A stretch of 64,000 bases of DNA from Desulfosarcina sp. BuS5 (GTDB lineage: Bacteria > Desulfobacterota > Desulfobacteria > Desulfobacterales > BuS5). Every line of letters begins with the position of its first letter. Position 1 is the stretch's first letter. The notes beneath the pieces are model-generated. The model was not told the origin of the DNA. It worked only from the letters and a program-made list of their open reading frames with translations, and ran no database searches. Below, one piece after another: positions 7,879-25,948 of this stretch. The position numbers and the translations under genes were made by a program. The stretch spans positions 2,523,041-2,587,040 of the forward strand of contig NZ_CP087952.1 in the NCBI RefSeq assembly GCF_028752835.1, given 5' to 3'.

Positions 7879-9264
7879 TTAAGAAGCCACCTCCTCATAA
7901 CCGTTTTCAAGATCATTTGCTATCAAACGAAACTGCTCAAGGGCAGCTTCAAGGTCTTCGACTATTTCCTGGGCGAGGATGCCGGGATCAGGAAGGTTTT
8001 CGGAATCTTCAAGGCTTTCGTCCTTGAGCCAGAAAATATCGAGGCCGGCTTTGTCCCGGTTTATGAGTTCATCGTATTCGAATGCCCGCCATCTGCCGTC
8101 AGGTTTCTTCTCAGTCCATGTGGGTTTGCGTTTGTTTCTGTTTTTTGGATTATAGCATGTTACAAATTCATCGAGGTCTTTGCGCTTTAAGGGATTGGTT
8201 TTGAGAGTAAAGTGTATGTTTGTGCGAAGATCGTATATCCAGAGCTTTTTTGTCCAGGGCTTTTCAGATGCGGCTTTGCGGTCGAAAAAGATAACGTTTG
8301 CTTTTACGCCCTGGGCATAGAACAGGCCTGTCGGCAGGCGAAGAAGCGTGTGGACCTCGCATTCGTGCAGGAGTTTTCTGCGGATATTTTCTCCTGCACC
8401 GCCTTCAAAAAGCACATTGTCCGGAACAACAACGGCCGCGCGGCCGTTTTGTTTGAGAAGGGTTTTTACATGCTGGACAAAGTTGAGCTGTTTATTTGAA
8501 GTTGTGGACCAGAAGTCTTCTCTTTCAATAATATCTTTTTCCTTAGAAATTTGACCTTTGCCGTTAACAATTGTCGTGCTGCTTTTTTTTCCAAATGGCG
8601 GATTAGTAAGAACAATATTAAACCGGTCGCCGGGATCTGCAGCAAGGGAATCTGATACCAGTATTGGAAGATCTTCATCACTGCCTATTCCATGAAGCAT
8701 AAGATTCATGGCACAAAGGCGGGCAGTGCTTTGAACCAGTTCCCATCCTTTGAATGTTTTGTTTTTAAGATTCTTCTTGTCTGCCTTAGACATATTTTTG
8801 TTTCGATCAACAATATAATCATGGGCAGCAAGGATAAAACCACCGGTTCCGCAGGCAGGATCGCAAATGGTTTCGCCGGGCTGCGCATCTATTACATCAA
8901 CCATTGCGCGAATAAGCGGGCGGGGGGTAAAATACTGACCTGCTCCTGTTTTTGTATCCTGGGCATTTTTTTCCAGAAGTCCTTCGTATGCATCGCCCTT
9001 GACATCAGCACTCATCACAGACCAGTTTTCATTATTAATCAAGTCAACAATCAACCGCCGAAGTTTAGCCGGGTCCTGAAACTTGTTCTGGGATTTCATG
9101 AAGATCAGCCCAAGCAGGCCTTTTTCTTTACCCAGATTTCTTAAAATGTTCCGGTAATGCTCAAATAACTCATCACCGTCTTTTTTAATCAGGCTGGGCC
9201 AGTCATGATTTTTCGGCACTATGCTTGGCTGTGTATATGGCGGCTTTGTCCTCTCATCTGCCAT
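7879..9264 (-). CDS. hsdM: Type I restriction-modification system N6-adenine methyltransferase subunit
   Basis: Modification subunit that, with HsdS, methylates adenine in the bipartite target and, with HsdR, forms the restriction complex. From the ATG at 9264 it has 461 residues: an N-terminal HsdM helical domain, SAM motif I CDPACGTGGF (residues 134-143) and catalytic motif IV NPPF (221-224). The ATG lies one base after the hsdS stop (TAAGATG), typical coupling. The frame stays open upstream to 9390 through the 12-bp tandem repeats of the hsdS end, encoding GKTP/RVET repeats. An ATG there could give a longer form, but the family N terminus favours 9264. Confidence 0.92.
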   Translation of the reverse strand: MADERTKPPYTQPSIVPKNHDWPSLIKKDGDELFEHYRNILRNLGKEKGLLGLIFMKSQNKFQDPAKLRRLIVDLINNENWSVMSADVKGDAYEGLLEKNAQDTKTGAGQYFTPRPLIRAMVDVIDAQPGETICDPACGTGGFILAAHDYIVDRNKNMSKADKKNLKNKTFKGWELVQSTARLCAMNLMLHGIGSDEDLPILVSDSLAADPGDRFNIVLTNPPFGKKSSTTIVNGKGQISKEKDIIEREDFWSTTSNKQLNFVQHVKTLLKQNGRAAVVVPDNVLFEGGAGENIRRKLLHECEVHTLLRLPTGLFYAQGVKANVIFFDRKAASEKPWTKKLWIYDLRTNIHFTLKTNPLKRKDLDEFVTCYNPKNRNKRKPTWTEKKPDGRWRAFEYDELINRDKAGLDIFWLKDESLEDSENLPDPGILAQEIVEDLEAALEQFRLIANDLENGYEEVAS

Positions 9265-9265
9265 C

Positions 9266-10786: not shown

Positions 10787-10890
10787 CAGGCAGCCAACGC
10801 CTCATTGAATTCATCCAAAATATCGTTCAACTCATCCCCAAACAACTGATACACTTTCCCAAGTCCACCCTCCTGCGAAAAAGGCACATA
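10786..10890 (-). pseudogene. Remnant of an hsdR 3' end directly upstream of hsdS
   Basis: About 34 codons read GYVPFSQEGGLGKVYQLF, then GDELNDILDEFNEALAA and a stop. The C terminus of the intact HsdR at 12411 reads EYSPFVQEGGLGKFYQLF, then GEEVSALLEDLNEQLAA. Roughly two-thirds of positions are identical, and codons differ, so this is not a fresh duplicate. Its TGA overlaps the hsdS ATG. It is best explained as the tail of an older, divergent hsdR that was replaced or displaced by the present hsdR and the ATP-binding gene. Confidence 0.85.
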
Positions 10891-10916
10891 TCCCCTGGAT
10901 ATATAATTCTTTCAAC

Positions 10917-12380
10917 TTATTTCCCTTTGTCAACATTCTTACCCAGCCATGCCTTCCCTTTTGCTGTAAGTCTATATTTCTGCAGCCGGCTTTGAGGCTT
11001 TTCCGGAATCGTCATTTCTATCCAGCCGCCTTCTATTGCTGGTAAAATATATGCTTTTCTGAAATGATCTGCATTGCGTAGCCCCAGTCTTTTCTGTAGG
11101 ATACGTCTACTTTCCGGTTGCAGACAGACTGGAAGCAGCCTTGCGACTTCCATGGTGACTTCCATGGTGACTTCCATGGTGACTTCACCTGCGACTTCCA
11201 TGGCCTTTTTGTCAGTTATCGGAAAAAACGTCACCACCACAGACCCGGCCCGCTCCTGCCAGCGAGGAACTGGATTGTCATTTTCTTCACACCAGTCAAT
11301 GATATTGGTTGTACCGCTTCCCCAGCGTTCAATAATACCTGCCCGGTAGAATGCATTGGCAATCAAGGGATTCCATGGTTTGGATTCATGTGGTTCTTTC
11401 AGTTTTTCAGGCGTTATGCCAAAATGAAATTCACCTGGATTGATGATTTCAAGCCTGTCATCATGCATGGCCAAAGCAACAGCACTACCCGGTTCAGTAT
11501 AGTCCCTGTGGCAAATAGCGTTTGCAATGGCTTCACGGGTTGCAGGCGGCGGATACCAAGGATTATCTTCCCTGACCATTTTTCCGGGAATAACACGCCC
11601 GGCAATGAGTACATGATCCAGCAAAAAACGTTCAGCCCGTCTGAGCAAAGAAAACGCATTTCCTTTATACTGCCTGTTGTCAATAAAATCACCCAACCGA
11701 TCTTTCCCCCGGAATCTTGCCAGGCGGATTTCACATTGCGGATAATAAGACCATATGTCGCGGCCAAACAACACAACGGCGGCATTTAGCAATTTATCAT
11801 CCCGTATAAGATCAAGACCTCTAAGAATAGATGTTGTATCCGTATTTTTTGGAGGTTCCATGCGCCCGATGCGGACTGAATTGGCAACCAGGGTCTGTAT
11901 CTCTTCATCGTCAAGGTCTGCAATGGTTATCCCTTTTGCAACAGGTTCGTTTTCCCACCGACGGGTTGCGTGGAGTTTCTCCATCAAACGGTTATTATAT
12001 TCACTGCGAGGCATCTGAATAGTTGTCGGGCCGTTTCTGATATAGGATCGACCGGAATATGCATAGAGGCCCCTGCTTCCGGTAACATGTATAATGATGA
12101 CAGCCTTTCCCGATTTCAGAGAAATTGTTTCAATGTCAGGAAAGGCAGGAGGTTCAATGTTGCGGATTTCGTTTGACATGTTTTCAAGTGTTTTTGCAGA
12201 AACCTGCTGCCCGGGAATTTCTCCTTTATCAGTCACCCCGAATAAAACAAAACCGCCCATACCGTTTAGCATGGCACAGACTGTTTTTGTCGCAGCAGTC
12301 CGCTGACCGGTGGTCTTTTTAAACTCAAGCCGGTCTGACTCGCCCTGCTTTACAAGCTGTTTCAGTTCCGTTAAATTCAA
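10917..12380 (-). CDS. AlbA_2/Schlafen-type ATP-binding protein (putative regulator) in the RM operon
   Basis: 487 residues with an N-terminal AlbA_2 domain (old name AAA_4): LVKQGESDRLEFKKTTG, then GGFVLFGVTDKGEIPGQ. A central ATP-binding C-terminal domain follows (REAIANAICHRDYTEPG, NPGEFHFGITPEKL, ERWGSGT), then a short repeat linker and a winged-helix end (LGLRNADHFRKAYI, TAKGKAW). Such proteins occur frequently beside type I RM genes as putative regulators or accessory factors; the biochemical role is unproven. Start is TTG at 12380, with AAAGG upstream, 30 bases after the hsdR stop. It sits between hsdR and the hsdR remnant, so it arrived or was kept as part of an inserted block. Confidence 0.85.
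   Translation of the reverse strand: MNLTELKQLVKQGESDRLEFKKTTGQRTAATKTVCAMLNGMGGFVLFGVTDKGEIPGQQVSAKTLENMSNEIRNIEPPAFPDIETISLKSGKAVIIIHVTGSRGLYAYSGRSYIRNGPTTIQMPRSEYNNRLMEKLHATRRWENEPVAKGITIADLDDEEIQTLVANSVRIGRMEPPKNTDTTSILRGLDLIRDDKLLNAAVVLFGRDIWSYYPQCEIRLARFRGKDRLGDFIDNRQYKGNAFSLLRRAERFLLDHVLIAGRVIPGKMVREDNPWYPPPATREAIANAICHRDYTEPGSAVALAMHDDRLEIINPGEFHFGITPEKLKEPHESKPWNPLIANAFYRAGIIERWGSGTTNIIDWCEENDNPVPRWQERAGSVVVTFFPITDKKAMEVAGEVTMEVTMEVTMEVARLLPVCLQPESRRILQKRLGLRNADHFRKAYILPAIEGGWIEMTIPEKPQSRLQKYRLTAKGKAWLGKNVDKGK
11145..11204. repeat. In-frame 12-bp tandem repeats in the AlbA_2 gene
   Basis: Five units: three of GACTTCCATGGT, then GACTTCACCTGC and GACTTCCATGGC. On the minus strand they encode MEV-T/A repeats that form a hinge between the ATP-binding region and the winged helix. 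Copy changes would alter linker length without a frameshift. Confidence 0.9.
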
Positions 12381-12410
12381 GATTCAGCCTTTAAAATAAT
12401 TTGTCTAATT

Positions 12411-15230
12411 TTAAGCTGCAAGCTGTTCATTTAGGTCTTCCAACAGGGCGCTTACTTCTTCACCAAACAACTGATAAAACTTCCCCAGGCCACCTTCCTG
12501 AACAAATGGTGAATATTCAAAGTCTTCCGTATCTATCGACAAATTCCCCGCAATATGATCCTTTATCATCTCAAGCCAATGAAGCTTATCTACTGTGAAC
12601 TCTTTCTCCTGCTGTGCCAGCCAGGCCTTAAAATTTGCATCCACCTTTTCCGGAAACGGCACAAGCTCATTTTCCTGCTCAAGTGCATAGCAAACAAGGG
12701 ATACAAGATCCGTCATTATCCGCGCGCCGCTTGCGCCTCTGACTCTTGATTGGCCCTTGGATTTTTCAAGAGCGGCATAGGCAGCCCAGAGATTGTCCTC
12801 TGTCCAGTGATGAGGCGGCTTATTGATGGTATCAGCCAATTCTTTTATATTTTCAAACTTTAAAGGCGACTTGTACGGCCTGGAATAAAGAATCTGCAGA
12901 GCAGTGATTTCATCCCTGTTATCCTCTATAAACTGTTTAAAAGACGCTACCATGCCTTTTGCCTTTTCCAGGGCCTCCGCGCTGAAGGCTGCCTCTATAA
13001 CAGTATCCGGACTTACATTATCAATAATCTGCTCGTTCTTTTTCTTTACCTCAAGCAACAGATTCCGTAAGTCCGGATTGTACAAAGGCTTGACAGCGCC
13101 TTTTATCAGGCTTTTCGCAGCCTGTTGAATTTGCTCTTCTGTAGGCTGATCCACATCCGGATTATCCTGTTTTGCCTGTTCCAAATGATTGTCAGGATTA
13201 AGGGCATTTACAAGATCAGATACAAGACCTCCCAGACTCTTGCCGTCTGTAACCTCTATAATCTTATCCGCATCTTCTTGTGAAATATTTTTATTGATAC
13301 GCGCAATACGGGCAGCCACGGAGGAGATAACATTCGGATCTGTGTTTCCAAGACTTACTGCCTGGAGAAGTTTTTCAAAGGATACTGATTTTTTCCGGTC
13401 CATGGGCTTTGAATCTGTCTTGTCCCGCTCGCACACACCAACAGCATCCACAATAATATAATGATCTTTTGCTTTGGCATCCGGTGTAACAGACTTTAGA
13501 TCATCATCATTGATTACGCGCACGCCCCGGCCCTTCATCTGCTCGAAATAACTGCGGGATTTCACACTGCGCATGAACATTACAACTTCAAGGGGTTTTA
13601 TGTCCGTGCCCGTGGCGATCATGTCCACTGTAACGGCAATCCTGGGATTATAACTGTTTCTGAATTCTGCTATAAGATCTTCTGGTTTTTTGCCGGTTGT
13701 CTTGTAGGTAATCTTCCGGGCAAAATCATTGCCCTTTGCAAATTCATCGCGCACGATTTTAACAATGTCTTCAGCATGGCTGTCATCTTTTGCAAAAATC
13801 AGGGTCTTTGGTACTTCGGTGCGGCCGGGAAAGATCTCTGTAAAGAGCTTGTCCCGAAACTTACTGACAACAGTGCGGATCTGATCCACTGCAACCACAT
13901 CACGGTCAAGCTTGTTTGCATCATATTCAAGATCTTCATCCAGCTGCTCCCAGCGAACTTCCCTGGTTTCCCTGTCACGAACATCAACATAATAGCCGGA
14001 CTCCACATTTGAGCCCTGTTCTGTAATTTGTGTCCTGATGCGGTAAACATCATAATTGACATTCACACCATCAGCCACAGCCTCCTCGTGCCCGTATTCC
14101 ATAACAAGGTTCTGGTTAAAAAAACCAAAGGTCTGTTTGCCGGGCGTGGCAGTAAGGCCGATAATATACCCGTCAAAATAATCAAGCACCTGCCGCCAGA
14201 GATTATAAATGGAGCGGTGACATTCATCTGTGATGATAAAATCAAAAGTCTCAATGGGAATGGCCGGATTGTATTCTATGGGCGGCACTTGGTCATAGAC
14301 ATTCTCAAGACCATTAACAGATTCTTCTTCATCAACTTCCTGAAGATCCACTCCCCTGAGCATGGAGTAAAGACGCTGGATGGTACAGATGCAGACCCGG
14401 GCGGTTTTATCAAGTGTGTTTGAAGTAAGGCGCTGAACAATATATTCTTCGCTGAATTTATAGTTGTTATAGGGTGAAACATACTGCTGAAATTCCTTAA
14501 GGGTCTGTTTGCCCAGATTGCCCCGATCAACAAGAAACAAAACCCGGCGAGCCTTTGCAAACTTGATAAGCCTGTAGATAAAATTAATTGCTGTAAATGT
14601 CTTACCTGAACCTGTGGCCATCTGAATAAGAGCACGGGGGCGGTTTTCCGCAAATGACTTTTCAAGATTTTTTACAGCTATGATCTGGGCAGGCCATAAG
14701 CCTTCCTCTATGAGCTCGGGCATCTGTTTGAGCCGCAGGTTCAAAGTGGAGGGTTTACCATAAGGGGCCTGCTTTTCAGCAACTTTACCCGGAAATACTG
14801 GTGTGTCATCATTCAGCCATTCTTCAAAAGTTTCCGGGAGATGAAAGGAAAAAGTACCCCTGGAACGGGGAACAGGGTCAAGATCATTTGTAAAACGGGT
14901 TTCAATACCTGTGGATTGATAACAGAAAGGAAGGGGACTGTACCATGCAGGAAGATCATCCGGCAGACCGGTTTTATACTTGTCTGACTGGATTTCAACA
15001 CCGGTAAGGGTATTACCGATTTTTTTTGCCTCAATAACACCTGCTGCCTTGCCATCCACATACAAAAGATAATCTGCAAAGCCATGGCCCTTATTTAAGG
15101 GAAACTCCCTGATGGCAACGCCCTTTTTTGCATGGATGTTGGCATTTTCAACATCCTGGATATCCCAGCCGGACTGATCCAGCATTTTGTCGATGTTTTC
15201 CCGGGCTTCTTGTTCTGGTGTTTTTGTCAT
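12411..15230 (-). CDS. hsdR: Type I restriction endonuclease subunit R (EcoEI-like)
   Basis: Motor and nuclease subunit of the type I complex. 939 residues from the ATG at 15230 (a TTG two codons upstream is possible). An N-terminal PD-(D/E)xK-type nuclease is seen as FADYLLYVDGKAAGVIEAKK. The SF2 helicase has Walker A ATGSGKTFTAI, motif II ITDECHRS (a DECH box), motif III TATPGKQTFG, and helicase motif VI near QMKGRGVR. An EcoEI-type C-terminal domain ends QEGGLGKFYQLFGEE. It heads the operon hsdR, AlbA_2 gene, (hsdR tail), hsdS, hsdM. The usual order is kept, but the hsdS/M half seems to come from a different ancestor than hsdR. Confidence 0.92.
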   Translation of the reverse strand: MTKTPEQEARENIDKMLDQSGWDIQDVENANIHAKKGVAIREFPLNKGHGFADYLLYVDGKAAGVIEAKKIGNTLTGVEIQSDKYKTGLPDDLPAWYSPLPFCYQSTGIETRFTNDLDPVPRSRGTFSFHLPETFEEWLNDDTPVFPGKVAEKQAPYGKPSTLNLRLKQMPELIEEGLWPAQIIAVKNLEKSFAENRPRALIQMATGSGKTFTAINFIYRLIKFAKARRVLFLVDRGNLGKQTLKEFQQYVSPYNNYKFSEEYIVQRLTSNTLDKTARVCICTIQRLYSMLRGVDLQEVDEEESVNGLENVYDQVPPIEYNPAIPIETFDFIITDECHRSIYNLWRQVLDYFDGYIIGLTATPGKQTFGFFNQNLVMEYGHEEAVADGVNVNYDVYRIRTQITEQGSNVESGYYVDVRDRETREVRWEQLDEDLEYDANKLDRDVVAVDQIRTVVSKFRDKLFTEIFPGRTEVPKTLIFAKDDSHAEDIVKIVRDEFAKGNDFARKITYKTTGKKPEDLIAEFRNSYNPRIAVTVDMIATGTDIKPLEVVMFMRSVKSRSYFEQMKGRGVRVINDDDLKSVTPDAKAKDHYIIVDAVGVCERDKTDSKPMDRKKSVSFEKLLQAVSLGNTDPNVISSVAARIARINKNISQEDADKIIEVTDGKSLGGLVSDLVNALNPDNHLEQAKQDNPDVDQPTEEQIQQAAKSLIKGAVKPLYNPDLRNLLLEVKKKNEQIIDNVSPDTVIEAAFSAEALEKAKGMVASFKQFIEDNRDEITALQILYSRPYKSPLKFENIKELADTINKPPHHWTEDNLWAAYAALEKSKGQSRVRGASGARIMTDLVSLVCYALEQENELVPFPEKVDANFKAWLAQQEKEFTVDKLHWLEMIKDHIAGNLSIDTEDFEYSPFVQEGGLGKFYQLFGEEVSALLEDLNEQLAA

Positions 15231-15301
15231 AAACAAACAGGAGGTTGATTAGCAAAGCAGTTTTGCTTTTAACCGCTTGAGAACTATGAATATTTAAAAT
15301 A

Positions 15302-15640: not shown

Positions 15641-17896
15641 ATGGATCGCCTTCTAAAAGCATTATTTTTTGGTATAGCAACAGGGCTGTTGGGGCTTTGT
15701 CTCACCCCACTGCTTTTTGGTCTGGAGGAAAATATCGGTCTTGAGTATCTATTTTCGATCAGAGGAAAAAGATATGCTCCCCGTGATGTCATTATTATAA
15801 GCATAGATAAAAATTCCGCCAAAAAATTAAACCTGCCCAATAATCCTGAAAAATGGCCCCGCTCTTTACATGCATCCCTTGTTGATATTTTAACGCAAAA
15901 AGGCGCAGCCCTTATTGCATTTGATGTTTTTTTCGATGAACCTCGTTCCCCGGCCGATGATAATTTATTTGCCTATTCAATAAAAAATGCGAACAACGTT
16001 CTCCTTTTCGAATCTTTGGACAAGGAAACTCTTCCGTTGACAAGCGAACAGGGAGCGCCTTCCGGTCAATTACATGCCGTAACACAAAAGCCGCCGATAC
16101 CTCTCTTTGCAAAATCGGCTCTGGCTGTGGCGCCTTTTGTTTTGCCGAAAGTACCGGTTAAGGTAAGTCAATACTGGACATTTCAAACAAGCGCAGGGGG
16201 GTTGCCAACCTTGCCAATGGTTGCATTTCAATTTTACGCTCTGAAAGTTTATGATGAATTTATCCATTTATTGAAAAAGGCTGACCCTGCCCAAGGAGAA
16301 AAAATCGCATTTCATAATCAAACGGCGTTAATAAATAATAAAGGTCTTTGCGAACTTATCCGGTCAACCAGGGATATTTTTCAAAAAGATCCGTCCATTG
16401 CGAAAAAAATGCTGGATGAGCTTCGTAACTCAAACTTATTATCCGGTGAAGTAAAAAAGAAACAAATTATTAAGGCGCTGATAAAAAATTATCAGGATCC
16501 CCCAAGTCATTTTATCAATTTTTACGGCCCCCCGGGCAGTATACCCACGATTTCCTATTCTGAAGTAATAATGGAACGGGGAAAGCCGGGGGCCAATCAA
16601 AAAAAGGTTATTTTTAAGGGTAAAGCCGTCTTTGTCGGGGTTTCGGAATATTTGCGGCCTGAGCAGGAAGATGGCTTTTATACTGTTTTTTCACAGGCCA
16701 GCGGGGTTGATATCAGCGGGGTTGAGATTGCGGCAACAGCTTTTGCAAACATGCTGGAAGATATGCCTGTCAAGCCGCTCAATTTGCTTTATCATCTTTC
16801 TTTTATCTTTTTTGGTGGAATGTTGCTGGGTTTTTTATCATTTTATTTTACTACCTTTGCCGCTGTAACAAGCATATTTGTTCTAAGTGCCATTTACCTG
16901 ATTTTTGCCCAGTATCAATTCAACAATTTCGGCAATTGGTATCCCCTTGTTATCCCCCTCTTGTTTCTATCTCCGGTTACTATTTTTTCAGCTTTTATCC
17001 GGAAATACCTTGAGGCACACAGGGAACGTAAAAATATCAGAAAAGCGTTTGGATATTATCTCCCTTCCAGGATAGTCGATCAACTTGTGGAAAACAAATC
17101 AGAAATTATCAAAACCGGAGAAATGGTCTCCGGAATTTGCTTATGCACGGATGCGGGACAATATACCACCTTGTCGGAAAGTATGAAACCTGATGAACTG
17201 GGAAGTTATATGAATGAATATTATGAAACTATTTTTGAACCGGTTGTTAAATCAGGCGGACTTATATCAAACATCGTGGGAGATGCCATGCTGTCCATAT
17301 GGGCTGATACCGATCTTGAGCCTGCCCTGATGAATAGGGCCTGCCACACAGCGCTTGATATAGTGCGCAATGTAAACCGTTTTAATAGTGAATCAACTCG
17401 ATTAAAACTTCCCATTCGCATAGGTTTGCATTCCGGGCAAATGATGATAGGCAATATTGGCGCCATCGATCATTATGAGTACCGCCCGGTTGGTGATGTG
17501 ATCAATTCGGCATCCCGGTTAGAGGGGCTTAATAAATACATGGGCACGGAAATACTTGCGTCTGCTGAGAGCCTGTATCAGGTTGATGATTTTTTAGTTA
17601 GAAATCTCGGAGAATTTCTTGTTGTTGGAAAGTCAAAACCGATCATGGTCTATGAATTAATATGCCGGAAGGAAGAGGCAAGCAAACAGCAAAAGGAGCT
17701 TTGTGCAATTTTTGATGAAGCCCTGAATTCTTACAGAAATCAATCATGGAATCAAGCAATTGCAAAATTTCACAATACAGCAAAAATATTTGGAGAAGAT
17801 GGACCTTCCCGTTTTTTTTCAGACCTTTGTGAAAAATATAAAAAAAATCCCCCGGATGAGACCTGGACCGGAATAGTTCGCCTGAATGTAAAATAG
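15641..17896 (+). CDS. CHASE2-domain class III adenylate/guanylate cyclase
   Basis: Membrane receptor cyclase of 751 residues. An N-terminal helix anchors an extracytoplasmic CHASE2 sensor (about 30-390; VIIISIDKNSAKKL, IAFDVFFDEPR, FINFYGPPGSIPT). Three membrane helices follow (about 385-455) and then a cyclase domain (about 490-660). Metal-binding Asp residues are present (LCTDAGQYT, NIVGDAMLS), as are the transition-state Asn and Arg in VINSASRLEG. The Lys normally found in the GGxxxKxxGD segment is Asn here (GGLISNIVGD), so nucleotide specificity or activity is uncertain. No classical ribosome site is seen before the ATG. It is 20 bases upstream of the FecR-barrel gene, suggesting one sensory unit. 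Confidence 0.88.
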   Translation: MDRLLKALFFGIATGLLGLCLTPLLFGLEENIGLEYLFSIRGKRYAPRDVIIISIDKNSAKKLNLPNNPEKWPRSLHASLVDILTQKGAALIAFDVFFDEPRSPADDNLFAYSIKNANNVLLFESLDKETLPLTSEQGAPSGQLHAVTQKPPIPLFAKSALAVAPFVLPKVPVKVSQYWTFQTSAGGLPTLPMVAFQFYALKVYDEFIHLLKKADPAQGEKIAFHNQTALINNKGLCELIRSTRDIFQKDPSIAKKMLDELRNSNLLSGEVKKKQIIKALIKNYQDPPSHFINFYGPPGSIPTISYSEVIMERGKPGANQKKVIFKGKAVFVGVSEYLRPEQEDGFYTVFSQASGVDISGVEIAATAFANMLEDMPVKPLNLLYHLSFIFFGGMLLGFLSFYFTTFAAVTSIFVLSAIYLIFAQYQFNNFGNWYPLVIPLLFLSPVTIFSAFIRKYLEAHRERKNIRKAFGYYLPSRIVDQLVENKSEIIKTGEMVSGICLCTDAGQYTTLSESMKPDELGSYMNEYYETIFEPVVKSGGLISNIVGDAMLSIWADTDLEPALMNRACHTALDIVRNVNRFNSESTRLKLPIRIGLHSGQMMIGNIGAIDHYEYRPVGDVINSASRLEGLNKYMGTEILASAESLYQVDDFLVRNLGEFLVVGKSKPIMVYELICRKEEASKQQKELCAIFDEALNSYRNQSWNQAIAKFHNTAKIFGEDGPSRFFSDLCEKYKKNPPDETWTGIVRLNVK

Positions 17897-17916
17897 TAAA
17901 ATAAAAAGGAAGGTTT

Positions 17917-20900
17917 ATGAAAAAATTGCCTTTATATTTCCAAAGGCTCACCACCCTAATCGGTATCCTGATGGTATTTTACTTACCAGTCAACGTGTCT
18001 GCCCAGAATGACGAAAAATGGGTGGCAAAGGTTGTATCTGTGCAGGGCAGCGTTCTGTCGCGCAGAGTCGGTGAAGATAATTGGGTAAAGGTTAGATTGA
18101 ACGATACCTATGGCTTTGGTGATATGCTTAAGGTGCAGGAGAAAAGCCGTGCAGGCATTATGCTTTGCAATGATATCATTCTCCGCCTTGATCAGCGGAC
18201 AACCATAACCCTTTTGGAGTCAGAAAAAGGAGATTCCACCTCTTTGATTGAGCTGTTAAAAGGGGCTGCTCATTTTTTCAGCCGTTCCCTGCAACAGCTT
18301 AGGGTCAATACGCCGTTTGTCAATGCTGCTGTTGACGGAACAGAATTTTTTATCAAGGTTGAAGAAGAGCAGACTTTGTTGTCGGTATTTGCAGGGCAGG
18401 TATCTGCAACAAATAAAAAAGGCCGGCTTCTCCTTGCGGATGGCCAATCGGCAATCGCCATGGCCGGGCATTCCCCGGTGCTGCGTATGTATCTGCACCC
18501 CAGGGACGCTGTCCGTTGGGTCCTTTATTATCCGGCTATTTTATATTATCACCCGGCTGATTTTACAAACGGCGTTGACAACGGTTGGCAAGCAATGGTT
18601 CGGGAATCCATAGAATTTTACCGGGCTGGAGACCTGGAAAAGGCCTTTTCAAGCCTGACCAAGGTGCCTGACGATATCTCCGACCCGCGGTATTATAACT
18701 ACCTGGCCGGTTTGCTGCTTACTGTGGGACGCGTAGATGAAGCTTCTTTCAACATAGAAAAAGCGTTAAGTATTGATTCCGGCAACAGCTATTCGTTTCT
18801 CCTCAAGTCGATCATCGCGTTAGCCCAAAATCAAAAGGATACAGCCCTTGGGCTGGCCCGAAAATCGGTGGAGCTGGATCCAGGCTCCTCCCCTGCCCTT
18901 ATTGCGCTCTCTTTTACTGAGCAGGCCCATTTCAAACTTCAAAGCGCATTAAACAGTATAAAAAAGGCCATACAACTCGATCCGGAAAATGGGCAGTCAT
19001 GGTCACGGTTGTCCGAACTCCGGTTGTCAGTGGGAGATATAGATGGCGCCCTTGATGCTGCCCGGGAAGCTATGCTCCTTAACCCCGACCAGACACGCAC
19101 CCAAACTGTTTGGGGCTTTGCCTGCCTTGCCATGATAAATATAAAAGATGCAAAAAAAGCATTTAAAAAAGCAATCAGGCTGGATCAGGCAGCACCCCTT
19201 CCCAGGCTGGGGCTTGGTCTGGCAAAGATTCGGGAGGGTGACTTAAAGGGAGGCCGCAGGGAAATTGAAATTGCGACAAGTCTTGACCCTAACAACTCAC
19301 TTATCCGCAGTTATATGGGCAAGGCCTACTATGAAGAAAAACGGAATAAGCTGGCCATGAGGCAGCTATCCATTGCAAAAAAACTTGATCCCGGGGATCC
19401 AACCCCATACTTCTATGATGCCATCCAAAAACAGACCATGAATCGCCCTGTAGAAGCTTTGCAGGATCTGCAAAAATCGATCGAATTAAACGACAACCGG
19501 GCTGTATATCGTTCGCGTCTTTTGCTGGATCAGGATCTGGCCGCACGGAGCGCCGGCCTTGCCCGAATCTATAATGATCTCGGATTTCAGCAACTGGCTT
19601 TAGTGGAAGGCTGGAAATCTCTCAATACCGACCCGGGCAATTATTCTGCACACCGATTCCTGGCTGATTCATACTCTGCCCTGCCGCGGCATGAAATTGC
19701 AAGAAGCAGTGAAATTTTGCAGTCCCAACTGTTGCAGCCGGTCAATATTACCCCGGTCCCACCCCAACTGGCCGAGGCGGGTCTGCAAATTTTGGAAGGG
19801 ACCGGGCCTGCAGCCCCATCCTTTAACGAATTTATGCCGCTTTTTAACCGAAACCGGTTTTCGCTGCAAGCCAGTGGTGTTACAGGGAAAAATAATACCC
19901 TGGGGGACGAAACGATACTGTCAGGAGTCTGGGGAAAGGGTTCATACAGCATTGGCCGTTTTCATTACAAAACCGATGGATTCCGGCAGAACAACGATTT
20001 AAAGCAGGAAATTTACAATGCATTTATCCAGGCCAGAATTAACCATAAAACAAGTGTACAGGCGGAACTCAGAAATACGGAGACTGAAAACGGCGATCTT
20101 GGCCTCCGCTTTGATCCGGCTTTTTCAAATGATTTCCATGAGGAACAAAGAGTTAAAATCTTGCGGCTCGGTTTTAAGCATACCTTGTCCCCCCGATCTG
20201 ATTTTGTTGGTTCTTTTATTTACCAGGATCTGGATCATGATCAAAATGACCACTATCCATCAGCCAAATTTACAGGATATGATTATGATGCTGAAAAACG
20301 CTGGGATGGCTATAATTTTGAGCTGCAGTATCTTTTTAAATCGGCAAGATTCAAGCTTACCAGCGGAATCGGCCATATTGAGCAGGACTTCAAAGATAAA
20401 ATTATGGTAGATTTGCTGCCATGGATCATAGAACCCCCTCCTCTCCCTCCTCCCTTGCCTCCTCTGCCCCCATTTGAATTTGATCCGCCTCCTTCCATCA
20501 AAGAAGAAGATGATGTTTTTCGCAGAACAAATATATATACGTATTCACAGATCAATCTTTGCCCGGAACTAACCTTGACAGCCGGGTTAAGCGCCGATTT
20601 TCTTGAGCGCGGAGAACAGGTGGAGCGCGATCAGCTCAATCCCAAAATCGGTCTGACCTGGCAGCTTTTTCAGGCAACCACGATAAGAATGGCGGCTTTT
20701 CGGGAACTCGGCAGTTGGGAATATATGGATCAGACCATCGAACCTACCCAGGTAGCAGGTTTTAACCAGTTTTATGATGATAATAATGGCACCGATTCTT
20801 GGCGCTATGGCGCCGCTGTTGATCATAAATTTTCTTTGGACATATTCGGCGGCATTGAGTATGCTGAAAGAAAACTAAAAGTTCCCCTGCTTATCGACCC

Positions 20901-21366
20901 CGACACAAACGCCAATCGGTTCGACTGGAAAGAAGAATTCGGCCGGGGCTATCTTTACTGGGCGCTCAATCCATTGCTGGCATTAAGCGCGGAATACCAA
21001 TACGAAAGGTTTGACAGAAAAACCGATGAATTCAGACTTGGAATACTTGATGCCAAAACCCACCGAATACCTTTAGGCTTTTATTTTTTTCATCCATCAG
21101 GGATAACTGCCCGTTTCAAAGGGACTTATTTCAGGCAAACTGGAAAATTTAAACAACACAATTCAGATGCTGTTTTTAATGGCAAGGATAGGTTTTGGGT
21201 GTTTGATACGGCCGTCAGTTATCGGCTGCCCCGGCGGCTCGGCCTGTTCAGACTGGGGATCAAAAATCTATTCGATAAAAAGTTTAATTTTCAGGATACG
21301 GATCCTCTCAACCCGATGATTATTCCGGAGCGCTTTATCTTTGTAAAGCTTTCACTGACCTTTTAA
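17917..21366 (+). CDS. FecR domain, TPR array and C-terminal outer-membrane beta-barrel fusion protein
   Basis: A secreted 1149-residue protein with a signal peptide (1-29, ending NVSA). A FecR domain follows (about 35-190; VVSVQGSVLSRR, VNTPFVNAAVDGTEF), then at least eight TPR-like repeats (about 230-610; for example AIQLDPENGQSWSRLSELRL). A C-terminal barrel (about 650-1149) has alternating strands and ends FVKLSLTF with the terminal Phe expected for outer-membrane insertion. A proline-rich loop (PPPLPPPLPPLPP) interrupts the barrel. AAAAGGAAGG precedes the ATG. Pairing with the CHASE2 cyclase suggests an envelope sensor feeding a cyclic nucleotide signal; this is inference. Confidence 0.82.
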   Translation: MKKLPLYFQRLTTLIGILMVFYLPVNVSAQNDEKWVAKVVSVQGSVLSRRVGEDNWVKVRLNDTYGFGDMLKVQEKSRAGIMLCNDIILRLDQRTTITLLESEKGDSTSLIELLKGAAHFFSRSLQQLRVNTPFVNAAVDGTEFFIKVEEEQTLLSVFAGQVSATNKKGRLLLADGQSAIAMAGHSPVLRMYLHPRDAVRWVLYYPAILYYHPADFTNGVDNGWQAMVRESIEFYRAGDLEKAFSSLTKVPDDISDPRYYNYLAGLLLTVGRVDEASFNIEKALSIDSGNSYSFLLKSIIALAQNQKDTALGLARKSVELDPGSSPALIALSFTEQAHFKLQSALNSIKKAIQLDPENGQSWSRLSELRLSVGDIDGALDAAREAMLLNPDQTRTQTVWGFACLAMINIKDAKKAFKKAIRLDQAAPLPRLGLGLAKIREGDLKGGRREIEIATSLDPNNSLIRSYMGKAYYEEKRNKLAMRQLSIAKKLDPGDPTPYFYDAIQKQTMNRPVEALQDLQKSIELNDNRAVYRSRLLLDQDLAARSAGLARIYNDLGFQQLALVEGWKSLNTDPGNYSAHRFLADSYSALPRHEIARSSEILQSQLLQPVNITPVPPQLAEAGLQILEGTGPAAPSFNEFMPLFNRNRFSLQASGVTGKNNTLGDETILSGVWGKGSYSIGRFHYKTDGFRQNNDLKQEIYNAFIQARINHKTSVQAELRNTETENGDLGLRFDPAFSNDFHEEQRVKILRLGFKHTLSPRSDFVGSFIYQDLDHDQNDHYPSAKFTGYDYDAEKRWDGYNFELQYLFKSARFKLTSGIGHIEQDFKDKIMVDLLPWIIEPPPLPPPLPPLPPFEFDPPPSIKEEDDVFRRTNIYTYSQINLCPELTLTAGLSADFLERGEQVERDQLNPKIGLTWQLFQATTIRMAAFRELGSWEYMDQTIEPTQVAGFNQFYDDNNGTDSWRYGAAVDHKFSLDIFGGIEYAERKLKVPLLIDPDTNANRFDWKEEFGRGYLYWALNPLLALSAEYQYERFDRKTDEFRLGILDAKTHRIPLGFYFFHPSGITARFKGTYFRQTGKFKQHNSDAVFNGKDRFWVFDTAVSYRLPRRLGLFRLGIKNLFDKKFNFQDTDPLNPMIIPERFIFVKLSLTF

Positions 21367-21537
21367 TTTCGTAAGCGTGAATAAAGAATGCCCAACAACA
21401 GTCCGTAAAAAACGAGGGTTAAAGGAGGTGATAATCTGAATCAGTAAGGCGTTTCAAATGTAAAAGCATTCAAGTGAAAATCTATAATAAGAGTATACAT
21501 TAATAAATTATAATATATCACAAAAAGGAGAAAGATA
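21367..21537 (+). promoter_or_regulatory. Leader region with a free-standing perfect Shine-Dalgarno sequence
   Basis: The spacer between the FecR gene and the next gene holds AAAGGAGGTGAT at about 21420, a full match to the 16S rRNA 3' end complement, yet no ATG/GTG/TTG frame of useful length follows it. A second site (AAAAAGGAGAAAGATA) serves the gene at 21538. The first may mark a lost small gene. Confidence 0.4.
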
Positions 21538-21921
21538 ATGGAGAAAGCCATAAAACGTTACAAATATTCATTGATAGCCTGCATAGTTATAATCCTCCTG
21601 CTCCTGTTCTGGATTATGACTTCGGGACAGTTGGGCTCCTTGCATAACACAGCGGAAAACGCCTTAGAAGGAGCGGTGGGAAGCATTGCTTTTAATAAAG
21701 ACGGAAATCTTGCTTTAGTCGATAATAAAGGCGAGCCATTAAATCCAATAGACTTACCCCTTAAATTAAGAGGCGGCGAGTTAAAATTTATGACCACTAT
21801 ATCCATGTTTGGAGTTAAAGGATCACCCCTGAGAATTGTTATACATATGGGAAGGTCGACATATGCTTTCTGCATAGACGATGCTACCGGCGAATGGTTG
21901 CCTTATGGTGCTTGCGACTAA
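21538..21921 (+). CDS. Uncharacterised single-pass membrane protein
   Basis: 127 residues: a short basic cytoplasmic start (KRYKYS), one membrane helix (residues about 10-28, LIACIVIILLLLFWIM) and a small exported beta-rich domain with GSIAFNKDGNLALVDNKGEP and a closing FCIDDATGEWLPYGACD holding two Cys. I do not recognise the family. AAAAAGGAG is well placed before the ATG. It follows the FecR-barrel gene and may belong with it, but there are 171 bases between them. Confidence 0.7.
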   Translation: MEKAIKRYKYSLIACIVIILLLLFWIMTSGQLGSLHNTAENALEGAVGSIAFNKDGNLALVDNKGEPLNPIDLPLKLRGGELKFMTTISMFGVKGSPLRIVIHMGRSTYAFCIDDATGEWLPYGACD

Positions 21922-22092: not shown

Positions 22093-23619
22093 TTATAATT
22101 TTATGTTGTAACGCACTATCTTGTTAAGCAGACCCTGGCGGGTCAGACCAAGAAGACCGGCAGCCCTGGAACGATTGCCCGCTGTCTCACGGAGAGCTTC
22201 ACTGACCATCTGCTGCTCGATTAGTTCAGTGACCTCTTTTAATTTTTTATCGCCTGGCGCTATGAAAACAGGAATTTCCTTTGGGTTGTTTATCTTTACG
22301 GATAAAAACTCTTCTCGAATCTCCCCCTCTTTTCCAGCCAGGATCAAGGCGCGTTCGATTTCGTTTTGAAGCTCTCTAATATTGCCGGGCCAGTCAAACC
22401 GGGCCAAAAGTTCCATTGCCCGGGGCGTTAAGCGGGCACCTGGTATCTTTAATTTTGTAGAAAATTTTTTAAGAAAATAATCCGCAAGCAGGGGAATATC
22501 CTCTCTTCTATCCCGCAAAGGAGGGAGCGTTATTGGAAATACATTGATTCGATAAAAAAGATCCGTGCGGAAATTACCTTTTTTTACTTCTTCTTCCAGG
22601 TTGCGATTGGTGGCAGCAATAAGGCGCACATCCACCTTAAGAGTGCGGCTTCCTCCAACTGGTCTAAATTCTCCTTCCTGGAGGACCCTGAGAAGTTTAA
22701 CCTGCATGGCTGCAGGCATATCCCCAATTTCATCAAGAAAGATGGTCCCTCCGTTTGCCAACCTGAAAAGCCCTTTTTTGTCGGTAACCGCACCGGTAAA
22801 GGCTCCCTTGACATGGCCGAAGAGCTCGCTTTCCAGAAGATTTTCAGAAAGAGCGCCACAGTTTTCTACCAGAAAAGGATTTTCCTTTAAATGACCATTA
22901 AAATGGATCGCCTTGGCAAAAATCTCTTTACCGGTGCCGGTCTCTCCCTGGATTAATACCGGGGTTTCTGTATCGATAACTTTTTCCAAAAGGGTAAAGG
23001 CCCGGCGCATTGCCGTGCTGGAACCGATGATCCCCTGAAGATTAAAACGATCCTGTGCCTCTGATTTAAGCCGTCTATTCTCCTGCTCCAAAGAACAGGC
23101 ATACTGTTTTAGTTCTCCATAAAACTGGGCGTTTTCAATCGCGATGGCGATTGTTCCGGAAAGGATCTCCAGTAACCTTTCCTCCTTTTTCGTAAACTCT
23201 CCCTTAAGTTTATTTAATACATATAACACCCCAATCAAGCCTTTCCGCGTCCGCAAAGGAAGGCAGATCATAGAGCGGGTTACAAAGTTTCCCTTCAGAT
23301 CTACCCCTTTAAAGAATCTGTCATCCCGTGATGTATCAGGTATTATTACCGGCTCTCTTTTGCGCAGCACCCATCCGGCCACTCCCAGATGATCCGGAAA
23401 CCGCATTTTCTGTATCCCTTTTTTTTCCCCGTTTCTTTCCTCCTCCACGGTACGGATAAAGTAAAATTCTTTATTTTCAGGATCATGAATGGCTATGGAT
23501 GCGCCTTCTATATGGAAAACAGCCTTAATTCTGCTAAGAATACTTTTAAGCATTTCATCCAGATCCCGAATGGCATGAATAGAGGTAGAGACCTCGTAAA
23601 GCAGCGTAATATCTTCCAA
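22093..23619 (-). CDS. Sigma-54-dependent transcriptional activator, GAF-AAA+-Fis
   Basis: Bacterial enhancer-binding protein of 508 residues. An N-terminal GAF sensor (about 1-165) is followed by a short coiled linker and an AAA+ sigma-54 interaction domain with Walker A GETGTGKE, the sigma-54 contact loop GAFTGA, Walker B GTIFLDEIGDMP and the R-finger region. A Fis-type helix-turn-helix at the end reads RSRAAGLLGLTRQGLLNKI. There is no receiver domain, so it is probably ligand- or redox-gated through GAF. Start is TTG at 23619 with GGAGAA upstream. It is divergent from a strong sigma-54 promoter at 23872 and is the obvious regulator of the protease operon. Confidence 0.92.
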   Translation of the reverse strand: MEDITLLYEVSTSIHAIRDLDEMLKSILSRIKAVFHIEGASIAIHDPENKEFYFIRTVEEERNGEKKGIQKMRFPDHLGVAGWVLRKREPVIIPDTSRDDRFFKGVDLKGNFVTRSMICLPLRTRKGLIGVLYVLNKLKGEFTKKEERLLEILSGTIAIAIENAQFYGELKQYACSLEQENRRLKSEAQDRFNLQGIIGSSTAMRRAFTLLEKVIDTETPVLIQGETGTGKEIFAKAIHFNGHLKENPFLVENCGALSENLLESELFGHVKGAFTGAVTDKKGLFRLANGGTIFLDEIGDMPAAMQVKLLRVLQEGEFRPVGGSRTLKVDVRLIAATNRNLEEEVKKGNFRTDLFYRINVFPITLPPLRDRREDIPLLADYFLKKFSTKLKIPGARLTPRAMELLARFDWPGNIRELQNEIERALILAGKEGEIREEFLSVKINNPKEIPVFIAPGDKKLKEVTELIEQQMVSEALRETAGNRSRAAGLLGLTRQGLLNKIVRYNIKL

Positions 23620-24044: not shown

Positions 24045-24992
24045 ATGACCGAAGAAAAATTTCAAATCATGTTATCCAAAGTGGAGGAAGTCAAAGAAAA
24101 AAATGAAGGACTGCTGTTCACTCTTCCCAATGTAGTTGGAGTGGGAATCGGATTAAAGGAGGTAAAAGGCAAGGAAACTAAGGAAATTGTTTTAAGTACT
24201 TATGTGGAAAAAAAGCTTTCCAGGGACAAACTTGGAGCAAACGAACTGGTTCCTGATACCTTTTCTATACCCAAGACTTCAGAAACAATAAAAACAGATG
24301 TACGCCAGGTAGGCAAAATTGAAGCTCTCGCTTTCACAGCAAATATAAGGCCAGCCAAGCCAGGCTATAGTATCGGGCACCACCTGATCACGGCCGGGAC
24401 GTTTGGCTGTTTAGTAAGGGATGTTTGCCCTCCCTGCCGGATTCATATTCTGAGTAATAATCATGTGCTGGCTAATTCAAATGCAGCAGGAATAGGCGAT
24501 CCGATTCTGCAGCCTGGACGTCATGATGGCGGCAGATATCCGGCAAATATGCTGGCAAGGCTATCGCGGTTTATACCCATTGCCTATGGCAGCATAGCTC
24601 AATACAATCTCGTGGACGCAGCTCTGGCACTACCAACGAATCAGAGAAAGGTGATCTCCTCAATTGTGGGGTTGGGTATCCCTAAGGGCACAGTGGAAGC
24701 TACATTGGGAATGGAGGTTATTAAAAGTGGCCGGACTACAGAAATCACAAAGGGCAAGGTTATCGGTATGGATGCAACCGTTGCAGTTCATTATGGCAGC
24801 GGAATAGCTTATTTCCGTAATCAGATCATGACTACCAACATGTCGCAGGGAGGTGACTCAGGATCTTTGCTGATGAGCCAGGCCGGGCACGAAGCAACAG
24901 GTTTGCTGTTCGCCGGTTCAAGCACAGTAACCGTTCATAACAATATTAAGAATGTTCTTATGGCTCTGGGTGTCGAAATTGTCACCCCTTAA
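24045..24992 (+). CDS. Trypsin-like serine protease with N-terminal accessory domain (Nal1-like)
   Basis: 315 residues, no signal peptide, so probably cytoplasmic. Residues 1-75 form a small alpha/beta domain (LPNVVGVGIGLKEV, IVLSTYVEKK). The rest is a chymotrypsin-fold protease with His in ILSNNHVLA, Asp in NLVDAALA and Ser in SQGGDSGSLL, plus CxxxCPPC-like cysteines (RDVCPPCRI). The best general match I know is the Nal1-like putative serine protease group. AAAGGAGGTG precedes the ATG. First gene of a three-gene operon under sigma-54 control; substrate unknown. Confidence 0.82.
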   Translation: MTEEKFQIMLSKVEEVKEKNEGLLFTLPNVVGVGIGLKEVKGKETKEIVLSTYVEKKLSRDKLGANELVPDTFSIPKTSETIKTDVRQVGKIEALAFTANIRPAKPGYSIGHHLITAGTFGCLVRDVCPPCRIHILSNNHVLANSNAAGIGDPILQPGRHDGGRYPANMLARLSRFIPIAYGSIAQYNLVDAALALPTNQRKVISSIVGLGIPKGTVEATLGMEVIKSGRTTEITKGKVIGMDATVAVHYGSGIAYFRNQIMTTNMSQGGDSGSLLMSQAGHEATGLLFAGSSTVTVHNNIKNVLMALGVEIVTP

Positions 24993-25030
24993 ACTTAAAT
25001 TAAATTGTTTTAAATAAAAAGGAGGGCGTA

Positions 25031-25948
25031 ATGGAAAATAAAAATAACTTAACCGAACTGCATAAGTACATAACGAATCAAATTATTGAAGAGCGTACCC
25101 GAGAGATGGCCGAAGCAATTGCCCAGAAACGAACAGAAGCCAAACTTGCGGAGGAAAACTATCAGAAAGATATCAAAGCAATGGAGGCTGCCGGCATAAA
25201 AGTTGCCAATATGGAAGCCCTTGATGTGGAGCTCAGTGCAGATGTGGATGTGGAACTTAAGGTCATTGAGGATAAAATGATCGAATTATCCCAAGAACCA
25301 TCTGAAGCCACGATAGGACTTGATATAGAGAAAGCCTTTCTGCCTCAGGACGCTTTGGTACTTTCCCCGGCGTGGGTTGCCGATTTTTCAGATGATGATG
25401 CACAAGACAAGCTAACCGGAGCATCATCCATAACGACCCAAACGCTGCTATCAGGGGGGGGGTGCAAAGACAAGTATGTCTGGGCTAAAGGGGCAGGTTC
25501 CGGCATTGCAGGCACCGGAGTTGGGAAAATTCAAGCATGGGTAGACTTTGGATTTTGGTTCAAGCCGTCGACCAGTAGATTTTACAGCATACGACCGCAC
25601 TTTCGCTTTCGAGGATTTTATATAGTCAAAGCGAATGACAAATGGTATAATTCAAAATTTGCACGGGTGAAGGTTTCTGCATGGACAAACGTTTATCAAT
25701 ATAACTGGAAGGGATGGAACAATATAGACGTACTCAACGTGGGCGATGATAACATCAACGTGAATAGGAGGTTTGATGCTGATCGTAACATGTATACCAG
25801 TTATCTGCTGGGCGGAGGTGATTGGGCTTATATAAGATGCACCATCGGTCTTTATGCCTATGCTAGGGGTAGCGGCTCATATGCAAAACTTGACTTCGCC
25901 ACAGGAGCGGCTAACTATCTCTATGTTCCATATTGCTACATTTATTAA
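25031..25948 (+). CDS. Uncharacterised protein of the protease operon, coiled N terminus and beta-rich C terminus
   Basis: 305 residues that I cannot assign to a family. Residues 1-100 are charged and helical (ITNQIIEERTREMAEAIAQK). Residues about 140-305 are rich in aromatic residues and glycine with repeated beta strands (WVDFGFWFKP, YSIRPHFRFRGFYIVK, VSAWTNVYQYNWKGWN, ending NYLYVPYCYIY), resembling a beta-sandwich. No signal peptide. AAAAGGAGGGCG precedes the ATG and the gap to the protease gene is 38 bases, so it is part of the same transcript. It could be the protease's substrate or partner; this is inference only. Confidence 0.75.
   Translation: MENKNNLTELHKYITNQIIEERTREMAEAIAQKRTEAKLAEENYQKDIKAMEAAGIKVANMEALDVELSADVDVELKVIEDKMIELSQEPSEATIGLDIEKAFLPQDALVLSPAWVADFSDDDAQDKLTGASSITTQTLLSGGGCKDKYVWAKGAGSGIAGTGVGKIQAWVDFGFWFKPSTSRFYSIRPHFRFRGFYIVKANDKWYNSKFARVKVSAWTNVYQYNWKGWNNIDVLNVGDDNINVNRRFDADRNMYTSYLLGGGDWAYIRCTIGLYAYARGSGSYAKLDFATGAANYLYVPYCYIY

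What the first reader, a model, noticed from the sequence alone, without database searches (positions are those of the whole stretch)
15641..21921. CHASE2 cyclase paired with a FecR-TPR-barrel fusion; cyclase has an altered specificity residue
The cyclase keeps metal and transition-state residues but has Asn where Lys usually recognises the base (GGLISNIVGD). Its partner joins a FecR domain, a TPR array and an outer-membrane-type barrel in one 1149-residue chain. Together they look like an envelope-spanning sensor with cyclic-nucleotide output, possibly of non-standard product.
Basis: partly seen in the sequence, partly recalled or inferred. Interest (0 to 1): 0.5.

Follow-up and report, generated by a model that had tools for sequence, protein, structure and literature searches.

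The report
Outer-membrane-coupled CHASE2 nucleotide cyclase sensor
Two neighbouring genes in a sulfate-reducer-like bacterium look like a sensor that spans the whole cell envelope, and its signal-making enzyme belongs to a branch whose base-choosing residues are swapped in polarity compared with ordinary cAMP-making enzymes, so it may make a different messenger.

Summary
A CHASE2 class III cyclase (15641-17896) lies 20 bases upstream of a 1149-residue chain with FecR, TPR and outer-membrane barrel parts (17917-21366). All metal and transition-state residues are present; Asn544 stands at the base-recognising Lys position.

Asn is a local variant of a clade-wide change. In a tree of 98 cyclase domains, 23 form one clade (support 0.999): position 1 is D12/N6/E3/Q1/G1, never Lys; position 2 is Arg in 17. 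The other 75 are Lys in 70 and Thr in 72. Acceptor-plus-donor is the reverse of the ATP pattern and suits guanine (or uracil) better; the product is untested.

The pair is co-conserved (19 of 23 clade loci). The partner also sits beside the same CHASE2 sensor when its output is a histidine kinase (1 locus) or SpoIIE phosphatase (1 locus), so it serves the sensor. AlphaFold2 plus Foldseek place the barrel among TonB-dependent receptors; no plug was detected. A GAF-sigma54 activator (22093-23619) co-occurs and is a candidate effector.

CHASE2-cyclase/FecR/TPR clusters are already in print, so this is a new variant of a known kind.

The parts
15641..17896 (+). CHASE2 class III nucleotide cyclase, 751 aa
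   Evidence: ORF; PF05226 and PF00211 over cut-off; AlphaFold2 model mean pLDDT 82.7, class III cyclase fold in Foldseek
15692..16789 (+). CHASE2 domain, aa 18-383
   Evidence: Pfam match
17147..17647 (+). class III cyclase catalytic domain, aa 503-669
   Evidence: Pfam match; PDB matches 3r5g, 6fht and others
17150..17152 (+). D504, first metal aspartate
   Evidence: numbering; D in 23 of 23 clade members
17270..17272 (+). N544, position of the base-recognising Lys
   Evidence: numbering; D12 N6 E3 Q1 G1 in the clade, K in 70 of 75 others
17282..17284 (+). D548, second metal aspartate
   Evidence: numbering; D in 23 of 23
17483..17485 (+). R615, position of the second base selector (Asp/Thr in adenylyl cyclases)
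   Evidence: numbering; R in 17 of 23 clade members, T in 72 of 75 others
17504..17518 (+). N622 and R626, transition-state residues
   Evidence: numbering; N in 22 of 23, R in 23 of 23
17917..21366 (+). partner: FecR - TPR - outer-membrane barrel, 1149 aa
   Evidence: ORF; FecR and TPR matches; FecR and TPR in 16 of 16 relatives; AlphaFold2 model mean pLDDT 74.5
18127..18402 (+). FecR domain, aa 71-162
   Evidence: Pfam match
18622..19506 (+). TPR array, aa 236-530
   Evidence: Pfam TPR matches; helical hairpins in the model
19507..19851 (+). 'neck' between TPR array and barrel, aa 531-645: the most conserved part of the partner
   Evidence: mean column conservation 0.81 against 0.53 for the barrel, 0.67 for TPR, 0.61 for FecR in 16 sequences
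19852..21363 (+). outer-membrane beta-barrel, aa 646-1149, TonB-dependent-receptor-like, no plug detected
   Evidence: strands in the model; Foldseek best matches FptA, OprC, FhuA, FecA; TonB_dep_Rec_b-barrel in 7 of 16 relatives
22093..23619 (-). GAF - sigma54 activator - Fis HTH regulator, 508 aa; candidate effector
   Evidence: Pfam; ortholog beside the pair also in L005, L047, L097; co-occurrence with the sensor in 146 genomes

Best explanation
The two genes make one envelope-spanning receptor. The partner sits in the outer membrane through a TonB-dependent-receptor-like barrel without a detected plug; its highly conserved neck, TPR arm and FecR domain reach into the periplasm. An event at the barrel (ligand binding or occupancy, or cell-surface stress) changes the FecR-TPR arm, which contacts the periplasmic CHASE2 domain of the inner-membrane cyclase. 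The CHASE2 domain then switches the cytoplasmic cyclase dimer. The cyclase belongs to a clade in which the donor-then-acceptor pair that reads adenine (Lys, Thr/Asp) has become acceptor-then-donor (Asp/Asn/Glu, Arg); I expect it to prefer GTP, giving cGMP, or to be relaxed in base choice. The product is probably read by the GAF domain of the neighbouring sigma54 activator or by one of the genome's cNMP-binding proteins. Shown by computation: domain make-up, intact catalytic residues, the clade-wide selector change, co-conservation, and the partner staying with the sensor across different outputs. Inferred: contact between the proteins, ligand, direction of signal, product, effector.
For: Partner beside the cyclase in 19 of 23 clade loci; partner gene in 11 of 12 sensor genomes against 5 of 134 others in the same order. 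The same CHASE2 sensor (47-51% identity over about 450 aa) with a histidine kinase-REC-REC-Hpt output (L046) or a SpoIIE output (L048) also has the partner nearby. Clade of 23, support 0.999 with the two selector columns masked; metal Asp 23/23 and 23/23, transition-state Arg 23/23 and Asn 22/23, so catalysis appears kept while base selection is changed; position 1 is D/N/E/Q in 22 of 23, not random. In guanylyl cyclases Glu at position 1 binds guanine N1/N2 and is the main specificity residue, position 2 is variable (PMC7384201, passages); a CHASE2 cyclase with Glu-Gly, Cya2, is a guanylyl cyclase, and its E488K variant has adenylyl activity (PMC4215837 and PMC5995499, passages). Barrel: Foldseek E 2.5e-14 to FptA, also FhuA and FecA. 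GAF-sigma54 ortholog in 7 of 12 sensor genomes against 6 of 134 others, p 5e-6 by genome, 8e-4 by family, and near the pair in the window, L005, L047 and L097. In S. meliloti, CHASE2 cyclases respond to a plant protein through the outer-membrane barrel protein NsrA (PMC13001267, passages).
Against: No biochemical data. The window has Asn, not an acid, at position 1. The clade itself varies (G/T, N/G, D/T, D/A pairs), so selection may be loose rather than switched. Four of 23 loci lack an adjacent partner (L007, L042, L045, L103). Partner-like proteins also occur without a CHASE2 gene in the stretch fetched (L175, L176, L177). The GAF-sigma54 ortholog occurs in 6 genomes without the sensor, and in several sensor genomes it lies elsewhere. 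The barrel is predicted from 16 sequences with low-confidence loops.
Confidence: 0.5

Rival explanations
1. Same receptor, ordinary adenylyl cyclase: the D/N-R pair still accepts ATP by another binding mode, and the output is cAMP read by CRP-type proteins.
For: Own genome has 5 cNMP_binding proteins. CHASE2 cyclases of S. meliloti work through cAMP and a CRP-type regulator (PMC13001267, passages). The paper on the related Campylobacterota cluster calls these adenylate cyclases (PMC9239204 section 9). Recalled, not from a call: mycobacterial class IIIc cyclases with Gln or Asn in place of Lys still make mainly cAMP.
Against: Both selectors changed together in one clade, with acceptors at position 1 in 22 of 23; adenine offers an acceptor at N1 and a donor at N6, the reverse of what this pair suits (contacts from PMC7384201, passages). 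The genome's other class III cyclase, L002, keeps Lys/Thr, so an ordinary enzyme is already present.
Confidence: 0.33
2. The clade makes a cyclic pyrimidine (cUMP), as Pycsar cyclases do: uracil N3-H and O4 also suit an acceptor-donor pair.
For: BcPycC reads UTP with Y50, D94 and R97 (PMC11224242, passages); by its numbering D94 would be the Lys position (inference). A PDB entry that I recall as BcPycC (7r65) is a weak profile match (E 0.0015).
Against: The Gly before the second metal Asp is kept in most members here, whereas the PycC Arg would lie at that Gly (inference from numbering). No defence effector was recognised beside the pair by eye; PADLOC was not scanned.
Confidence: 0.08
3. The cyclase domain is a weak or non-catalytic output that mainly signals by shape.
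For: The sensor works with non-cyclase outputs in L046, L048 and L049.
Against: All four catalytic residues kept in 22 of 23 (one Asn to Ser).
Confidence: 0.07
4. The two genes are only neighbours; the partner is a separate uptake receptor.
For: TonB-receptor-like barrel; partner-like genes without an adjacent CHASE2 gene in L175-L177.
Against: Linkage in 19 of 23, co-occurrence p 5e-12, linkage kept with other outputs, no plug domain among the Pfam matches of 16 relatives.
Confidence: 0.05

Closest known systems
Campylobacterota CHASE2 adenylate cyclase cluster (PMC9239204, section 9 read)
   Same: [quoted passage not shown] authors propose one pathway
   Different: There FecR protein and TPR protein are described as separate genes, with a phosphodiesterase gene; here FecR, TPR and barrel are one chain, no phosphodiesterase gene was identified (none was searched for), and the cyclase has the changed selector pair
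S. meliloti CyaD1/CyaD2/CyaK with NsrA (PMC13001267, passages)
   Same: CHASE2 cyclases whose activity depends on an outer-membrane barrel protein
   Different: NsrA is described as a barrel protein; FecR or TPR parts of NsrA and the cyclases' selector residues were not tested here
LysM-FecR plus CHASE2 histidine kinase operon, BiofilmReg (PMC5192318, passages)
   Same: FecR protein encoded with a CHASE2 sensor
   Different: Histidine kinase output, LysM instead of TPR-barrel
Synechocystis Cya2 (2w01; PMC5995499 and PMC4215837, passages)
   Same: CHASE2-linked class III cyclase without Lys at position 1
   Different: Glu-Gly pair and shown guanylyl cyclase; here Asn-Arg, unassayed
FecA-FecR-FecI cell-surface signalling (recalled; FecA fold)
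   Same: TonB-receptor-type barrel and FecR domain passing a signal inwards
   Different: One fused chain, no plug detected, no FecI-type sigma factor recognised; the proposed inner-membrane target is a CHASE2 enzyme
BcPycC uridylate cyclase (PMC11224242, passages)
   Same: Class III cyclase with Asp among the base-reading residues
   Different: Different second residue and a phage-defence role; CHASE2 not mentioned in the passages seen

Membership tests
Class III nucleotide cyclase | PF00211 domain with two metal Asp and transition-state Asn and Arg | tested here: met
   fold match
Class III adenylyl cyclase, canonical | Lys plus Asp/Thr base selectors | tested here: not met
   N544 and R615; 0 of 23 clade members have Lys
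Guanylyl cyclase, canonical Glu-Cys/Ser type | Glu at position 1 | tested here: not met
   Asn in the window; Glu in 3 of 23 clade members
Guanylyl cyclase | makes cGMP from GTP | not testable with these tools
   needs an assay
CHASE2 sensor proteins | PF05226 over its cut-off with flanking membrane helices | tested here: met
   99.2 bits; long helices 2-41, 382-402, 405-430, 437-470 in the model; membrane insertion inferred
FecR domain proteins | PF04773 over its cut-off | tested here: met
   47.9 bits; 16 of 16 relatives match
TonB-dependent receptor | TonB-receptor-type beta-barrel | tested here: met
   Foldseek matches to FptA, OprC, FhuA, FecA; PF00593 in 7 of 16; strands not counted exactly
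TonB-dependent receptor | N-terminal plug domain | tested here: inconclusive
   no plug family among the matches of 16 relatives; a diverged plug in the neck is not excluded
TonB-dependent receptor | energised uptake through TonB | not testable with these tools
   TonB box not searched; needs experiment
Campylobacterota-type CHASE2-FecR-TPR cluster | CHASE2 cyclase gene next to FecR and TPR protein genes | tested here: met
   adjacent genes, FecR and TPR in one chain
Campylobacterota-type CHASE2-FecR-TPR cluster | phosphodiesterase gene in the cluster | not tested
   no dedicated search for phosphodiesterases was made
Pycsar pyrimidine cyclase system | PycC with adjacent cyclic-pyrimidine-gated effector | not tested
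   PADLOC not scanned; neighbours read by eye only

The most novel reading that the evidence does not exclude
A clade of CHASE2 cyclases has inverted the polarity of its base-reading pair (acceptor then donor instead of donor then acceptor), makes cGMP (or another non-cAMP messenger), is driven from the outer membrane by a plug-less receptor barrel fused to a TPR arm and a FecR domain, and is read by a GAF-sigma54 activator: a surface-signalling route in which the FecI-type sigma factor is replaced by a cyclic nucleotide and sigma54.
Probability: 0.25. Interest if true: 0.75.

Novelty: new variant of a known kind. Interest (0 to 1): 0.5.

Why it matters
What CHASE2 domains sense is called unknown in one paper I read in part (PMC5192318, passages). 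A partner that follows the CHASE2 domain across three kinds of output, and that ends in an outer-membrane receptor barrel, points to where the signal enters. A natural clade with reversed selector polarity is a ready test of how class III cyclases tell ATP from GTP, which the RhGC paper calls still poorly understood for guanylyl cyclases (PMC7384201, passages).

Tried and rejected
Rejected: that Asn544 is a one-off oddity (it is one state of a clade-wide change); that the 127-aa ORF at 21538-21921 belongs to the system (no relative found); that a sigma54 promoter lies upstream of the cyclase or of the regulator (simple pattern, no hit; this does not exclude one).

Led nowhere: plasmid searches for close clade members gave only more distant cyclases; in the six named loci opened, five have Lys (with Thr or Ser at position 2) and one has Asn/Thr. 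A plasmid search with the neck region gave no match. The S. meliloti cyclases could not be read (the NsrA paper is not held). PMC2447327 gave no passage on Rv1900c or Rv0386, so the class IIIc precedent is recalled only. Three searches found no paper that joins this architecture, or a GAF-sigma54 cyclic-nucleotide effector, to it (listings only); CHASE2 with FecR gave three papers. VIA-align's list of 50 was filled mostly by TPR proteins, with one barrel row.

Counting choices: the 98-domain tree kept matches at E 1e-10 or better and dropped rows with more than 120 gaps and rows with identical cores; clade members were also those above 300 bits against the profile. Genome sets were 146 of the order, 297 of the phylum and 398 of a second phylum; only the best loci (30 or fewer per search) were fetched, so distant cyclases are under-sampled. 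Neighbourhoods were read for all 23 clade loci, several cut by contig ends; the control was 9 Lys/Thr or similar CHASE2 loci (L050-L058, one of them, L055, Met/Gly).
Full report
WHAT IS THERE. The window holds a 751-aa ORF at 15641-17896 and a 1149-aa ORF at 17917-21366, same strand, 20 bases apart. Pfam finds CHASE2 and Guanylate_cyc in the first and FecR and TPR in the second, all over cut-off. The window lies in a 4.18 Mb genome; the nearest named relative of the cyclase (91% identity) is in a metagenome-assembled Desulfobacterales genome. The genome has one CHASE2 protein and two class III cyclases over the cut-off, this one and L002.

THE CYCLASE. D504 and D548 (metal) and N622 and R626 (transition state) are present. 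To see whether this is local I gathered cyclase domains from the order (146 genomes), the phylum (297 genomes), a second phylum around a relative whose record is titled Gammaproteobacteria (398 genomes) and six named plasmid loci. Of 98 distinct domains kept, 23 form one clade (support 0.999) in a tree built with the two selector columns masked. In it position 1 is D 12, N 6, E 3, Q 1, G 1 and position 2 is R 17, T 2, A 1, K 1, N 1, G 1. In the other 75, position 1 is K in 70 and position 2 is T in 72. The metal Asp residues are kept in 23 of 23, the Arg in 23, the Asn in 22; a Tyr replaces Phe four residues after the first metal Asp in 23 of 23 (F in 73 of 75 others). So catalysis looks kept and base reading changed. 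Two clade members, L008 and L108, come from that second phylum.

WHAT THE CHANGE MAY MEAN. Lys and Asp/Thr contact adenine N1 and N6; in guanylyl cyclases Glu at position 1 contacts guanine N1/N2 and carries most of the specificity, while position 2 varies (PMC7384201, passages). GC position 2 can be C, S, T, H, A or G, and bacterial Cya2 has E-G (PMC4215837, passages). Cya2 is CHASE2-linked and its E488K variant has adenylyl activity (PMC5995499, passages). An acceptor at position 1 with a donor at position 2 suits guanine, or uracil, better than adenine: this is inference. The window's Asn can both donate and accept, so relaxed choice is possible. Nothing here measures the product.

THE PARTNER. 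AlphaFold2 on 16 sequences (mean pLDDT 74.5) gives a signal helix, a beta-rich FecR region, a TPR array and about twenty long strands up to the C-terminus. Foldseek's best matches are TonB-dependent receptors (FptA E 2.5e-14; OprC, FhuA, FecA; TM-score by target about 0.5). VIA-align puts TPR proteins first and the receptor PirA at Z 17.4 (rmsd 3.6, 410 aligned, model range 561-1149). TonB_dep_Rec_b-barrel is matched by 7 of 16 relatives; FecR and several TPR families by 16 of 16; no plug family is listed. The most conserved part is the neck, aa 531-645 (0.81; barrel 0.53).

CO-CONSERVATION. Neighbourhoods were read for all 23 clade loci. The partner lies beside or near the cyclase in 19: window, L004, L005, L008, L040, L041, L043, L044, L047, L095-L102, L104 and L191 (L099 has one ORF between, L102 several; L004, L040, L095 and L104 are cut by contig ends). 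It is missing beside L007, L042, L045 and L103. In L042's genome two partner pieces lie 1.5 Mb apart, and in L045's genome partner pieces are on another contig. L191 carries a second partner-like copy. Of nine more distant CHASE2 cyclase loci none had the fused partner. But L174, a Lys/Thr CHASE2 cyclase, has a distant FecR-TPR-barrel neighbour, so the fused partner is not confined to this clade. In 146 genomes the partner (E 1e-60 or better) is in 11 of 12 sensor genomes and 5 of 134 others, Fisher p 5e-12; relatedness is not corrected for in that figure.

OUTPUT SWAPS. Three relatives share only the CHASE2 half: L046 has HisKA-HATPase-REC-REC-Hpt, L048 and L049 have SpoIIE. L046 and L048 have the partner nearby; L049 begins at a contig end and no partner was found in its genome. 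The partner therefore tracks the sensor, not the output.

CANDIDATE EFFECTOR. At 22093-23619 (minus strand) lies a GAF-sigma54-Fis regulator. Orthologs with the same GAF lie near the pair in L005, L047 and L097; other GAF-sigma54 regulators lie near L041, L099 and L102. No sigma54 regulator was found near the nine control loci, though L056 has a weak GAF match. The genome has 19 strong sigma54 activators, so a chance neighbour cannot be dismissed. The GAF ortholog (280 bits or more, next hit 151) is in 7 of 12 sensor genomes and 6 of 134 others: p 5e-6 by genome, 8e-4 by family using 73 families (the highest family number). In most of those genomes it is not next to the pair. GAF domains bind many ligands; this is a lead.

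WHAT IS KNOWN. Campylobacterota clusters of CHASE2 cyclase, phosphodiesterase, FecR outer membrane protein and TPR protein are in print (PMC9239204, section 9). S. meliloti CHASE2 cyclases respond through the barrel protein NsrA (PMC13001267, passages). A LysM-FecR/CHASE2-kinase operon is in print (PMC5192318, passages). I found no paper on the fused FecR-TPR-barrel chain with a cyclase, or on the selector clade, in ten searches; subscription papers are mostly not held.

VERDICT. Observation confirmed, interpretation partly supported. A new variant of a known kind of sensor, with a testable prediction about its product.

Noticed in passing
window 7879-15236, minus strand: Looks like a type I restriction-modification set (methylase, specificity and helicase subunits) with another ORF (10917-12380) between; read from translations only.
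   Followed up: no
window 24045-25948: A trypsin-like protein with weak Nal1-type matches followed by a 305-aa ORF of unknown function; possibly a protease pair.
   Followed up: partly
window 44366-47334: Two near-identical transposase genes: one copy appears split into 44366-44830 and 46393-47334 around an inverted intact copy at 44852-46264.
   Followed up: no
L182 3334-8617: The GAF-sigma54 ortholog lies beside a different class III cyclase (AAA_16 type, Gln/Thr selector pair) in a genome without the sensor.
   Followed up: partly
L048 251-1540: A separate class III cyclase (Glu/Thr pair) next to the CHASE2-SpoIIE gene.
   Followed up: no
L191 2-1294 and 4167-7526: A second FecR-TPR partner-like copy near the pair in a genome of another phylum.
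   Followed up: no
window 17162-17164 (Y508): Tyr replaces the usual Phe four residues after the first metal Asp in all 23 clade members; meaning unknown.
   Followed up: no
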